DNA of 64,000 nucleotides from Bradyrhizobium prioriisuperbiae (GTDB lineage: Bacteria; Pseudomonadota; Alphaproteobacteria; Rhizobiales; Xanthobacteraceae), in contig NZ_CP135921.1 of the NCBI RefSeq assembly GCF_032397745.1, forward strand, positions 2,604,001-2,668,000, read 5' to 3'. The position numbers were made by a program, and so were the translations under genes. Below, one piece after another: positions 14,099 to 59,022 of the stretch. The notes under the pieces are model-generated. The model was not told the origin of the DNA, did no database searches, and worked only from the letters and a program-made list of their open reading frames with translations. Every line of letters begins with the position of its first letter. Position 1 is the first letter of the stretch.

Positions 14099-14263
14099 CT
14101 AGTGTCCCGAATTCGAAGTTCGCATCACGTGGCAGCGCCTCCGAGCGAACTTCGAATTCGATCAGGACACTAGCAATTTTATGATTCTGGGGTGCTTTAT
14201 GAACGCGAAGTTCCTGAAAGAGTCAGCCGCATCATCACAGGAACTTCGCGTTCAGCACACCAG
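14099..14263 (-). repeat. Dual-hairpin element, copy A
   Basis: Read on the minus strand it has hairpin 1 (14263-14187), a 13-base spacer and hairpin 2 (14173-14099). Hairpin 1 pairs GAACGCGAAGTTCCTG with its complement around a loop of about 21 bases and carries an ATAA bulge. Hairpin 2 pairs CGAATTCGAAGTTCGC and carries a TGAT bulge. The element fills the entire intercistronic space, from the base after the Bug-gene stop to two bases before the next ATG. Hairpin 1 is nearly identical to that of copy B. Confidence 0.93.
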
Positions 14264-53170: not shown

Positions 53171-53334
53171 CTAGTGTGCTGAACGCGAAGTTCCTGTGAG
53201 GGTGCGGCAGGCTCTTTCAGGAACTTCGCGTTCATAAAGCACACTAGAATCATAAGCTTGCTAGTGTCCTGATCGCTTCGCAAGTTCGTCGGAGGTCGCT
53301 GAGAACGCAACGAACTTGCGAAGCGGGACACTAG
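53171..53334 (+). repeat. Dual-hairpin element, copy B
   Basis: Hairpin 1 is 53171-53247: outer arm CTAGTGTGCT, inner arm GAACGCGAAGTTCCTG, 21-base loop, complementary inner arm, ATAA bulge, complementary outer arm. The spacer is AATCATAAGCTTG (53248-53260). Hairpin 2 is 53261-53334: outer CTAGTGTCC, TGAT bulge, inner CGCTTCGCAAGTTCG and complements. It lies in the large gap between rpmB and the DUF3108 gene. Confidence 0.95.
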
Positions 53335-53554
53335 ATGCGACGGAAATCGCCGGAACCCGTGATTTCGTGCGGTTTTAGCAGATCTACAGCCTGCGGGAAG
53401 CCGTTTTGCCCTAACATATTAACGACGCAATCGCCGCCGCATGATCGGGGCCTTCGGAAAGCGATATCTGTTTGACGACGCTTCGAATTTTACCTTATCG
53501 GGAAATGCTTTATTGCCGGTCGCTTTGTTTGTTGGAAACGACGCCTATATGGCC
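53335..53554. other. Non-coding stretch between dual-hairpin copies B and C
   Basis: 220 bases with no credible gene and no strong hairpin noticed. It is less GC-rich than neighbouring genes. It may hold the promoter for the DUF3108 gene, although copy C then lies between that promoter and the gene. Confidence 0.5.
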
Positions 53555-53723
53555 CTAGTGCCGCCGATCTGAAGTTCCTGCACCACTCGCGGCAAACTCA
53601 TCCCAGGAACTTCAGATCGAAAAGCGGCACTAGAATCATAGATTTGCGAGTGCCCCTGATGCATCCGAAGTTCGTGTCAGAGAGTGCTGCGATGGATCAC
53701 GAACTTCGGATGCGGGGCACTCG
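53555..53723 (+). repeat. Dual-hairpin element, copy C
   Basis: Hairpin 1 (53555-53633) has outer arm CTAGTGCCGC, inner CGATCTGAAGTTCCTG and an AAAA bulge in place of ATAA. The spacer is AATCATAGATTTG. Hairpin 2 (53647-53723) has outer CGAGTGCCCC, a TGAT bulge and inner GCATCCGAAGTTCGTG. All stems differ from copy B yet pair fully, so it is not a recent tandem duplicate. It ends 68 bases before the chosen DUF3108 start. Confidence 0.95.
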
Positions 53724-58000: not shown

Positions 58001-58521
58001 TTGCCGCCGAGCCCGAACTGATCGAAGTCTGGCGTCCGGGTGGACGCTCGGAAGAACGGCGTCCGCGCCACGACCGCAATCAGCATCGCCGCCATCAACC
58101 TCAGGCAGCGGCCGGTGCGCCGGCTGGCGAGGGCGAGGCGCGGGAGCGTCCGGGGCGTGGCGATGGCCGGGGCCGGCGCGATCGCCGCGACGAATTCCGC
58201 AAGCTTCGCGCCGACGGACCTCGTCCTGATGCACCCCGTCCGGAGGGAGCGCCCGCCGCTGCCACGGATGGCGCCCAAGGCCGCCCGCCACGCGACAATG
58301 ATCATCGCAAGCAGCGCGGACGGCCACCCGAAGGCTTCAAGGGCAAGTTCAGGGGCGGACAGCAGGGCCGCAATGACAGCCGCCCGGGGAACAACGGGCC
58401 GCGTCACGGACAAGGCAATCCGCCGCCGCGTGAGCGCGAGCGGCCGATCGACCCCAATTCGCCGTTTGCCAAACTGGCTGCCCTGAAGGAGCAGCTCACG
58501 GCGGCGCGCAAGGACGGTTAA
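55030..58521 (+). CDS. SUV3-like DExH RNA helicase with long disordered C-terminal extension
   Basis: The 1163-residue protein resembles the mitochondrial RNA helicase SUV3. It has Walker A GPTNTGKTHLAIERM at residues 33-47, SGIIGLPLRLLAREVY, the DEIQ box in FLAVDEIQIAADLERGH and a second RecA-like domain with VATDAIGMGLNLDVDHVAF. Motif VI is FAQIAGRAGRATRDG. A large middle part follows (about 330-860). From about residue 860 it becomes Ala/Glu/Pro/Val-rich, then Arg/Gly/Gln-rich (GEAREDR-like and RPGNNGPRHG), probably disordered and RNA-binding. In mitochondria SUV3 works with PNPase in RNA decay. The bacterial role is less clear. Confidence 0.92.
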   Translation: MPLSSRSLSSMSSSLPSLANGRAPGAGVTAVLGPTNTGKTHLAIERMLAHSSGIIGLPLRLLAREVYNKIVARVGPADVALITGEEKIKPPKARFWVSTVEAMPRDLDVSFLAVDEIQIAADLERGHVFTDRILNRRGRDETLLLGAATMRPIIERLLPAANIVTRPRLSQLMFSGDRKITRQPRRTAIVAFSADEVYAIAELIRRQHGGAAVVLGSLSPRTRNAQVDLFQSGDVDYLVATDAIGMGLNLDVDHVAFASDRKYDGYQFRRLTPSEFAQIAGRAGRATRDGTFGTTGRCEPFEPELVDALQNHAFDSVKVLQWRNAKLDFSSLAALQVSLAQTPSHEALTRAPVAEDLRVLDHASRDGDVRDMAQGAAAIERLWEACQIPDYRRVAPAAHAELVTTLYGFLMQKGRIPDDWFAAQIAPTDRTDGDIDTLSGRIAQIRTWTFAANRPDWLADPEHWQEISRSVEDKLSDALHERLTERFVDRRTSVLMRRLRENTMLNTEIGKTGEVVVEGHVIGRLDGFMFAPDAAEAGSEAKALQAAALKALAGEIDARAEKLSKAPDDQFVLASDGTLRWTGDAVAKIVAADDVLHPRLRIIADDRLTGAPRDAVQARLDLWLKTHIEKLLGPLFEVSKAEDVTGIARGIAFQLVESLGVLERQKIATEMKDLDQPSRATLRKYGVRFGAYHIYIPSLLKPAARGIASLLWAQKLDNVDASALSGAQHLASSGRTSFPVDKALSRDAYRVLGYRQCGERAVRVDILERLADLIRPALAWRENSPGVKPGGAFDGRGFTVTQAMTSLTGSAGEDFASVLRALGYRMEKRPPLPPAPEKPVVAAAEDAAAPVADDTAVVDAGSGETVAIDAGETPETETVEAVASVAAEPEAPVAEAAADAVAPEAVATEEAVASEEAAAPEAIADGASSAGALVNPFESAPAVVETAGDTPVESQSAEPAADVTAEPAIAEAAGTEPAATEAAEAPAAEAVAAEPELIEVWRPGGRSEERRPRHDRNQHRRHQPQAAAGAPAGEGEARERPGRGDGRGRRDRRDEFRKLRADGPRPDAPRPEGAPAAATDGAQGRPPRDNDHRKQRGRPPEGFKGKFRGGQQGRNDSRPGNNGPRHGQGNPPPRERERPIDPNSPFAKLAALKEQLTAARKDG

Positions 58522-58523
58522 AC

Positions 58524-58690
58524 CTAGTGTGGCGTTTCCGAAATTCCCCTCACATCGCGGCGATCTCATCGAGGGAATTTCGGAAACATAAGCCACACTA
58601 GAATCTAAAGTTTTCGAGTGTCCTGATCGAATCCGAAGTTCGCTCCGAAAGTGCGGTTGAGTGATGCGAACTTCGGATTCGGGACACTGG
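58524..58690 (+). repeat. Dual-hairpin element, copy D
   Basis: It begins two bases after the helicase stop. Hairpin 1 (58524-58601) has outer CTAGTGTGGC, inner GTTTCCGAAATTCCC and an ATAA bulge. The spacer is AATCTAAAGTTTT. Hairpin 2 (58615-58690) has outer CGAGTGTCC, a TGAT bulge and inner CGAATCCGAAGTTCGC. It ends 23 bases before the GTG of the S4-domain gene. Confidence 0.95.
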
Positions 58691-58713: not shown

Positions 58714-59022
58714 GTGGAGCGCCAGCGCATCGACAAATGGCTGTGGCATGCGCGGGTGGTGAAAACCCGCAGCGACGCGGCGTCGCTGGTAGCGAGCGGT
58801 CACGTTCGTCTCAATGGTGTGCGCGAGACGTCGCCTGGACATGGGGTCAAGCCGGGAGACGTGCTGACGGTGGCGCTCGACCGCACCGTTCGCATCCTCA
58901 AGGTCACGGGATTTGCCGAGCGGCGGGGTGATGCGTCGTCGGCCCGCGCGCTTTATACCGATTTGCAGAAGCCGGATCCGCAGAACGCGGAGAGTTCGGA
59001 CCCGCAGGATACCGGCCCATAA
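58714..59022 (+). CDS. S4 RNA-binding domain protein (Hsp15-like)
   Basis: The 102-residue protein has one S4 domain: QRIDKWLWHARVVKTRSDAASLVASGHVRLNG, then VKPGDVLTVAL. Hsp15 binds stalled 50S subunits carrying peptidyl-tRNA and helps recycle them. The C-terminal 25 residues are polar and poorly conserved. GTG 58714 is chosen because the frame further upstream (from 58651) runs through hairpin 2 of repeat copy D. A modest GAGG lies about 13 bases before it. It follows the SUV3-like helicase gene in the same direction, and the two probably share a transcript. Confidence 0.9.
   Translation: MERQRIDKWLWHARVVKTRSDAASLVASGHVRLNGVRETSPGHGVKPGDVLTVALDRTVRILKVTGFAERRGDASSARALYTDLQKPDPQNAESSDPQDTGP

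What the first reader, a model, noticed from the sequence alone, without database searches (positions are those of the whole stretch)
53171..53334. A dual-hairpin repeat family with covarying stems (four complete copies in 64 kb)
Copies at 14099-14263, 53171-53334, 53555-53723 and 58524-58690 share one architecture. Hairpin 1 has a four-base bulge on its 3' arm (ATAA, or AAAA in one copy). A 13-base spacer near AATCATAAANTTG follows, then hairpin 2 with a TGAT bulge on its 5' arm. The stem sequences differ (for example GAACGCGAAGTTCCTG, CGATCTGAAGTTCCTG and GTTTCCGAAATTCCC in hairpin 1), yet both arms change together so pairing is kept. Bulges and spacer are the conserved parts. That pattern points to selection on structure, as in a structured RNA, or to hairpins recognised by a Y1-type transposase such as the REP-associated enzymes. 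I do not recognise a named family.
Basis: seen in the sequence. Interest (0 to 1): 0.85.

Follow-up and report, generated by a model that had tools for sequence, protein, structure and literature searches.

The report
Two-hairpin transposon passengers with offset ends
The repeats are small gene-less jumping elements made of two back-to-back hairpins, most likely moved by IS630-type transposases, and the same two-hairpin design recurs in many genomes of one bacterial order.

Summary
The four copies belong to a family of about 165 bp, with at least 57 near-complete copies in this 9.08 Mb genome. Pairing is 98.4% over 19 aligned copies, with two-sided changes in 26 of 51 pairs. A Y1/REP system is unlikely: two single-contig genomes with many copies have no Y1 match, and the Y1 loci scanned lack these ends. 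The outer ends resemble terminal inverted repeats of IS630 (Tc1/mariner) elements, CTAG-TGTCCYGA..GAAGTTCG. Four of six nested insertions show duplication of one CTAG-type tetramer. Best reading: a non-autonomous IS630 element (MITE) of unusual build. It is an inverted dimer whose inner arms copy the ends but carry 3-4 extra bases, the 'bulges', which I infer put them out of register. It occurs in 77 of 149 genomes of the family and 45 of 297 of the order. Against: no IS630 gene with matching ends was found in the own genome or in G122, which has most copies. Why the inner arms stay paired is open.

The parts
53171..53334 (+). Dual-hairpin element, copy 1 (CTAG...CTAG): hairpin 1 53171-53247, spacer 53248-53260, hairpin 2 53261-53334
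   Evidence: 57 near-complete copies in the genome
53555..53723 (+). Dual-hairpin element, copy 2 of another subfamily: hairpin 1 53555-53633, spacer 53634-53646, hairpin 2 53647-53723
58524..58690 (+). Dual-hairpin element, copy 3: hairpin 1 58524-58601, spacer 58602-58614, hairpin 2 58615-58690; follows an ORF ending at 58521 and precedes or overlaps the start of an ORF ending at 59022 (helicase-like and S4-domain-like by my own reading, no family search)
14099..14263 (-). Dual-hairpin element, copy 4: hairpin 1 14187-14263, spacer 14174-14186, hairpin 2 14099-14173 (family orientation on the minus strand)
53171..53193 (+). Left outer end (IS630-like terminal inverted repeat): CTAGTGTGC, 7 nt, GAAGTTC
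53312..53334 (-). Right outer end (IS630-like terminal inverted repeat), read on the minus strand: CTAGTGTCC, 7 nt, CAAGTTC
53235..53238 (+). 4-nt insert (TAAA) in the inner arm of hairpin 1, which moves the inner foot away from the GAAGTTC core
53270..53273 (+). 4-nt insert (TGAT) in the inner arm of hairpin 2

Best explanation
Each copy is a non-autonomous miniature transposon (MITE) moved in trans by IS630-family (Tc1/mariner-type DDE) transposases. The transposase would bind the two outer ends (about 23-26 bp beginning CTAG-TGTCC, 7 nt, GAAGTTC), cut there and insert the unit of about 165 bp into a CTAG, duplicating its TA. The unit is an inverted dimer: each end is followed by a loop and a complementary inner copy of itself, so each half folds into a hairpin. 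The inner copies carry 3-4 extra bases between foot and core. I infer that this puts them out of register, so only the outer pair is cut and the dimer moves whole. SHOWN by sequence: dispersal with sharp CTAG ends, outer ends like those of IS630 elements, duplication of one tetramer in nested insertions, the 3-4 nt offset in nearly all copies parsed, covarying stems, wide spread in the order. INFERRED: that IS630 transposase acts on it, that the offset blocks inner cutting, and that the paired inner arms help mobilisation or survival.
For: Near-identical copies fix the boundaries at CTAG: 11 of 12 printed in G057 (9 at unrelated sites, 2 inside other copies of the family) and 7 of 7 printed in G076. 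In G057 an IS630-family transposase of 372 aa (NF033545, 270.6 bits, cut-off 100) is bounded by CTAG-TGTCCCGAGTCATAAGTTCGC and CTAG-TGTCCTGAACCAGAAGTTCGC. CTAG-type inverted ends of any class, matching in at least 13 of 22 positions, flank 69 of 100 IS630 loci; with a shuffled right flank 0 of 80. Of 83 distinct outer ends from 57 own copies, 72 match some IS630 end in 15-20 of 22 positions, 11 in 11-14; shuffled ends reach at most 13. The foot-to-core gap is 7 nt in 96 of 114 outer ends (14 not recognised by my motif, 4 of 6 or 8 nt); the inner insert is 4 nt in 52 of 57 and 51 of 57 hairpins, and in G122 3 nt in 31 and 37 of 40. In 4 of 6 nested cases, removing the insert with one tetramer restores a continuous host copy. 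Some copies elsewhere in the order have CTAGTCACC or CTAGTGGA ends, and IS630 ends of such kinds exist. IS630 and ISY100 insert at TA and duplicate it (PMC2170065, passages).
Against: No IS630 gene with matching ends was found in the own genome: the best is 38% identical and its ends begin CTAGTACCCGG. In G122 only fragments and in G066 nothing match the DDE_3 or IS630 models; G012 has no IS630-model match, G072 only pieces, G076 one below the cut-off (77.1 v 100 bits). So the mover is absent, lost or unrecognised where copies are most numerous. Co-occurrence is only moderate: 21 of 27 genomes with an IS630 relative have the element v 56 of 122 without (counts taken by hand; Fisher p = 0.003; no correction for relatedness, and the relatives include subgroups with other ends). 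Hairpin 1 outer ends match less well than hairpin 2 ends. In the class comparison a G066 end ties between classes I and II (19 v 19) and one class III right end fits class I better (16 v 15). TA v CTAG duplication cannot be told; two of the four nested cases have one altered tetramer (TTAG, CTAA) and the two in G057 may not be independent. Flanks of empty sites in relatives are too diverged to read the target. No transposition experiment was done.
Confidence: 0.8

Rival explanations
1. REP/BIME-type elements moved by a Y1 tyrosine transposase (RAYT): hairpins with a bulge in alternating orientation around a spacer.
For: Inverted pair of bulged hairpins separated by a short linker, as in BIMEs; no ORF spans any of 57 copies by a crude gene caller; 4 Y1_Tnp matches in the own genome.
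Against: No Y1_Tnp match in G122 and G066 despite many copies; no end motif with up to 2 mismatches in the Y1 loci scanned (L029, L031, L032, L163, L164); no GTAG/CGTC start in 57 of 57 copies; hairpins of about 75 bp, not 20-40 bp; tetramer duplication in nested cases, which IS200/IS605-type transposition is not known to make (recalled).
Confidence: 0.04
2. A structured RNA or mRNA-level element (terminator, stabiliser, RNase III site) kept in place by selection on the transcript; mobility is secondary.
For: Strong covariation. Stems differ less between nearest neighbours than loops and spacer (0.072 v 0.187 and 0.168 per base; outer arm 0.037, inner arm 0.045, loops 0.17-0.26, spacer 0.23 in G122; loops and spacers of unequal length left out). 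NEMIS hairpins are proposed RNase III substrates in Neisseria (PMC2229807, passages).
Against: One-sided mismatches are not enriched for G-T over A-C (15 v 24; 20 v 31), though the transcription direction of each copy is unknown. Convergent gene pairs, where terminators are expected, hold 4 of 56 classified copies v 10 of 44 gaps in the window (crude gene caller). No Rfam match at gathering score. Near-identical copies at unrelated sites need a mobility mechanism anyway.
Confidence: 0.1
3. The stems covary mainly because long DNA palindromes correct one arm from the other (template switching at replication), not because of selection. This concerns the covariation and can hold together with the best explanation.
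For: Nearest-neighbour copies often differ by compensated pairs: hairpin 1, 47 compensated, 39 one-sided and 7 two-sided unpaired differences over 47 neighbour pairs; hairpin 2, 25, 31 and 2 over 49 pairs; at distance 2 there are 7 and 10 compensated changes, one per pair. Even the CTAG feet change in concert in single copies.
Against: Neutral correction should not make stems change less than loops, and should erase the 3-4 nt insert, which stays. In G122 one-sided changes dominate, 70 v 27 compensated.
Confidence: 0.3
4. Moved by an unrelated CTAG-targeting transposase, for example the IS5-like element (my naming, no family search) found in or beside three copies.
For: That IS or its end sits at a CTAG of copies L022, L111 and L110.
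Against: Its ends (GGGCCTGTCC...) do not resemble the element's ends; in L022 and L111 it lies inside a copy and so is an invader.
Confidence: 0.03

Closest known systems
RUP of Streptococcus pneumoniae (MITE attributed to IS630-Spn1)
   Same: Short (107 bp) intergenic repeat whose ends match an IS630 element and which inserts at TA (PMC2229807, passages)
   Different: 9-bp ends by that review's table and not described in the passages as a two-hairpin dimer; here two hairpins, 23-26 nt ends, a 3-4 nt offset in the inner arms, and a wide range in one order
REP/BIME/REPIN repeats with RAYT (Y1) transposases, including GTAG-14, GTAG-3, CGTC-1 and CGTC-3 of Bradyrhizobium
   Same: Dispersed palindromes, often as inverted pairs (PMC3733652, passages)
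   Different: CTAG at both ends, hairpins of about 75 bp, no Y1 link, IS630-like ends; the consensus sequences in that paper's figures were not seen
Br-REP1 and Br-REP2 of Bradyrhizobium japonicum USDA 110
   Same: Repeated stem-loops in intergenic regions of Bradyrhizobium (PMC5082802, passages)
   Different: Three core strings from their printed consensus occur in 0 of 57 copies
QMITE2 of Coxiella burnetii, reported also in Bradyrhizobium and Rhodopseudomonas
   Same: A MITE with a palindromic stem and 83-100 nt relatives in alphaproteobacteria (PMC5896051, passages)
   Different: Sequences were not compared; identity with one hairpin is not excluded by any test here
Correia/NEMIS of Neisseria and other bacterial MITEs with TA ends
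   Same: About 100-200 bp, inverted ends, TA at termini in most of them, strongly folded transcripts (PMC2229807, passages)
   Different: Not described there as a dimer of two hairpins with offset inner ends
Bru-RS1/Bru-RS2 of Brucella and RIME of rhizobia
   Same: Palindromic repeats of about 100 bp; Bru-RS seen in a listing and table lines, RIME and the IS-target role recalled
   Different: Sequences were not compared

Membership tests
MITE of the IS630 family | Short unit without a transposase gene | tested here: met
   148-170 bp; longest closed ORF inside any of 57 copies 54 aa
MITE of the IS630 family | Terminal inverted repeats shared with IS630 elements | tested here: met
   72 of 83 distinct own ends match some IS630 end in 15-20 of 22 nt; shuffled maximum 13
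MITE of the IS630 family | Dispersed near-identical copies with sharp ends | tested here: met
   G057 (11 of 12 printed) and G076 (7 of 7 printed)
MITE of the IS630 family | TA (CTAG) target duplication | tested here: met
   4 of 6 nested cases, one CTAG-type tetramer each; the other 2 untestable; TA v CTAG not resolvable
MITE of the IS630 family | Autonomous partner with matching ends in the same genome | tested here: inconclusive
   Met in G057; not found in the own genome, G122 or G066
MITE of the IS630 family | Mobilisation in trans shown by experiment | not testable with these tools
   No bench work
REP/BIME with RAYT | GTAG (or CGTC) tag at one end | tested here: not met
   0 of 57 copies
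REP/BIME with RAYT | Y1 transposase gene flanked by the repeats, or at least present in the genome | tested here: not met
   No end motif in 5 Y1 loci scanned; no Y1_Tnp match in G122 and G066
Br-REP1/Br-REP2 | Published consensus core | tested here: not met
   0 of 57
QMITE2 | Sequence of the published element | not tested
   Sequence not seen in the passages read
Named Rfam RNA family | Score at or above gathering | tested here: not met
   0 matches in the window

The most novel reading that the evidence does not exclude
The two-hairpin body is a long-lived, gene-less lineage spread over an order that outlives its movers. It keeps its body (dimer, offset inner ends, AATCATA-like spacer) while its ends follow different IS630 subgroups, and the paired inner arms with the 3-4 nt offset are working parts. 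They either prevent cutting at inner ends, or let a folded (cruciform) end be recognised, which would be new for a DDE transposon as far as I recall.
Probability: 0.3. Interest if true: 0.75.

Novelty: new variant of a known kind. Interest (0 to 1): 0.52.

Why it matters
It names a likely mover for an abundant repeat (434 matches to the end motif in one 6 Mb genome) that no Rfam model marks in the window. I did not see it described in the listings of literature searches (an open-access library; capped lists, titles and abstract starts) or in the passages of six papers. It gives a case where element ends seem to differ with transposase class while an unusual internal structure is kept. It is also a test bed for whether covariation in a DNA palindrome reflects selection or arm-to-arm copying, a trap for anyone who reads covariation as proof of a structured RNA.

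Tried and rejected
Y1/RAYT mover: tested in the own genome and four others and rejected. Rfam: nothing at gathering score. Br-REP cores: absent. Terminator role: few convergent positions, weak evidence because the gene caller was home-made. Pairing between the TGAT insert and the ATCA of the spacer: looked at by eye only, no covariation seen. Empty sites in the own genus: G001 and G002 are too diverged, so the genus of G122 was used. The 14 loci of site A were chosen because one search showed the two flanks nearly adjacent there, so '13 of 14 lack the insert' shows that empty places exist, not how often; the fourteenth (L348) aligned to the wrong region. Site B holds a different repeat in two relatives; at site C two of three relatives have CTAT at the aligned place. 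L356 was fetched and not used. The element DNA search in plasmids found nothing for two queries and 11 records for a CTAGTCACC-class copy. The literal-sequence literature search counted 211 papers; the 20 listed looked unrelated by title. In one search, 31 of 100 IS630 loci gave no end pair above the cut; at least some of these are cut off by contig ends or are the more distant relatives. The IS630 ends per class (six each) were picked by hand.

Full report
OBSERVATION. The two hairpins, the 4-nt inserts and the 13-nt spacer are real. Folding energy (one copy, DNA parameters) is 11 standard deviations below shuffles. Over 19 picked copies of the own genome, 26 of 51 pairs show a change on both sides and no shuffle of 500 reaches the observed values; sliding the partners drops pairing from 98.4% to 25-42%. 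A covariance model found 138 matches, both strands counted, with only 150 of 2,920 first-look candidates scored. From the rerun over 69 loci I used 57 near-complete copies, 148-170 bp long, and left out fragments and copies split by an IS.

ANATOMY. The reverse complement of hairpin 1 has the layout of hairpin 2, so the unit is an inverted dimer. The outer ends read CTAG-TGTSC or similar, 7 nt, GAAGTTC-like core; the inner arms carry extra bases between foot and core. The insert is exactly 4 nt in 52 of 57 (hairpin 1) and 51 of 57 (hairpin 2) own-genome copies, 0-5 nt in the others; the outer gap is 7 nt in 96 of 114 ends, 14 ends not being recognised by my motif and 4 having 6 or 8 nt. In G122 the insert is 3 nt in 31 and 37 of 40 copies and 2 or 4 nt in the rest; 40 of 41 copies of the right length were used. 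Copies from other families of the order show the same architecture: four folded, 20 printed.

MOBILITY. In G057, 11 of 12 printed copies are near-identical; nine have unrelated surroundings and two (L149, L150) sit inside other copies of the family. In G076 all 7 copies printed are near-identical. The shared sequence begins and ends at CTAG. Nested insertions show the target: in 4 of 6 cases (two in G057, perhaps not independent, and two in G122), taking out the insert with one tetramer restores an unbroken host copy; the paired tetramers are CTAG/CTAG twice, CTAG/TTAG and CTAA/CTAG. For the other two no intact copy spanned the joined site. In the genus of G122, 13 of 14 loci chosen for adjacent flanks lack the insert of one site; the flanks are too diverged for base-by-base reading.

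MOVER. Y1_Tnp has no match in G122 and G066 and one each in G057 and G076. G057 holds an IS630-family gene (DDE_3 and HTH domains; NF033545) whose unit of 1,214 bp is bounded by CTAG and ends of the same design. Over 100 IS630 loci (80 named loci, the best of a capped list, and 20 of the loci), 69 have a CTAG-type inverted end pair of any class matching in 13 or more of 22 positions, against 0 of 80 (the named loci) with a shuffled right flank. Of 83 distinct own-genome outer ends, 72 match some IS630 end in 15 or more of 22 positions; shuffled ends reach at most 13. Of the 10 named loci at 82% identity or more, 9 are Bradyrhizobium. IS630 and ISY100 are reported to insert at TA and duplicate it (PMC2170065, abstract and passages); a preference for CTAG is seen there only as the title of a reference.

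CLASSES OF ENDS. Among 20 copies printed from elsewhere in the order, right ends CTAGTCACC..GAAGTTCG or ..AAAGTTCG occur in G313 (5 of 5, one with TTAG for CTAG), G419 (2 of 2), G250 (1) and one of two from G211; G201, G307 and G346 have CTAGTGGA and CTAGTGGT..GACATT ends. IS630 ends of such kinds exist. Against hand-picked IS630 ends, CTAGTCACC ends match class II in 19 of 22 (class I 16-17). CTAGTGGA left ends match class III in 17 (class I 12). For the CTAGTGGT right ends the distinction is weak: class III v I is 16 v 15, 15 v 16 and 16 v 14; and a class I end of G066 ties with class II at 19. I read this as ends following different transposase subgroups. It is suggestive, not a tree-based test, and I did not search those genomes for IS630 genes.

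DISTRIBUTION. Family: 77 of 149 genomes, 31 of 47 genera (at most 19 candidates scored per genome). Order: 45 of 297 genomes, 26 of 123 genera (at most 9). Copy numbers per genome are therefore capped. An element copy of the CTAGTCACC class finds full-length matches in 9 Roseibium/Labrenzia plasmid records, 88-90% identical, and partial ones in 2 Sphingopyxis records. IS630 relatives at E <= 1e-40 occur in 27 of 149 family genomes; 21 of these 27 and 56 of the other 122 have the element (hand count; Fisher p = 0.003; no correction for relatedness). In several genomes with many copies the IS630 model finds little: G122 two fragments, G066 and G012 nothing, G072 pieces, G076 one match of 77.1 bits under the cut-off of 100.

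WHY ARE THE STEMS KEPT? Between nearest-neighbour copies, stems differ at 0.072 per base, loops at 0.187, spacer at 0.168 in the own genome. In G122 outer arms differ at 0.037, inner arms at 0.045, loops at 0.17-0.26, spacer at 0.23. Loops and spacers of unequal length were left out, and neighbours were chosen by stem distance, which favours low stem values. The inner arms, which a DDE transposase should not need, are about as constrained as the outer ones. Compensated changes are frequent in the own genome (72 compensated, 70 one-sided, 9 two-sided unpaired over both hairpins), less so in G122 (27 v 70). One-sided mismatches are not richer in G-T than in A-C (two ambiguous pairs per hairpin left out), which gives no sign of RNA-level tolerance. 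Arm-to-arm correction probably contributes, but it does not explain the slow stems or the surviving insert. I therefore think the hairpins matter for the DNA element itself, with the inserts keeping the inner ends out of register. This step is inference.

FORMS THAT BEAR ON IT. In the 20 stretches of G122 read (about 0.38 Mb) there are 73-bp forms with two outer-type ends (L296:4184-4256, L299:8986-9058, L301:2753-2825, L303:10028-10100), and the own genome has a 71-bp form without an insert (L110). Solo hairpins with one inner end also occur, at least as remnants (L108, L115), so the idea that single hairpins cannot move is not proved.

CONCLUSION. Most likely a MITE of the IS630 family, close in kind to RUP (PMC2229807, passages), of an unusual build and with a wide range in one order. 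The membership features that could be tested are met, except that the autonomous partner is missing in the own genome and in the richest genome. Hosts are unnamed in these tools; that the window's genome is a relative of Bradyrhizobium is my inference.

Noticed in passing
L022 about 1127-1971, L111 about 1597-2441, L110 from about 1572 (own genome 4.00, 5.48 and 5.10 Mb): The same insertion sequence (ends GGGCCTGTCCTCAATTG, IS5-like by my naming) sits at a CTAG in the middle of two dual-hairpin copies, and its end follows the CTAG of a 71-bp form at L110, so the repeats serve as landing sites for another IS. Only the end was seen at L110.
   Followed up: partly
L176:877-2062 (own genome, about 0.90 Mb) and the right flank of L048 (1889377): Another IS630 subgroup with ends CTAGTACCCGGAATCATAGCTG is present in the own genome; the flank of copy L048 begins TACCCGGAATCA directly after its CTAG, as if this IS or a derivative had landed there.
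   Followed up: no
L351 and L352 (G169, G027) at the place of G122 element L287:13755-13925: Relatives carry a different palindromic repeat (CGTCATTGCGAGCGAAGCGAAGCAATCC...) near the same place.
   Followed up: no
L292:14719-15048, L305:2821-3149, L302:352-592 (G122): Composites of more than two hairpins; the first two are nested insertions by reconstruction, the third was not resolved.
   Followed up: partly
window 53171-53723 and 58524-58690: Three of the four window copies lie within 5.6 kb, against 57 near-complete ones in 9.08 Mb; such clustering was not tested.
   Followed up: no
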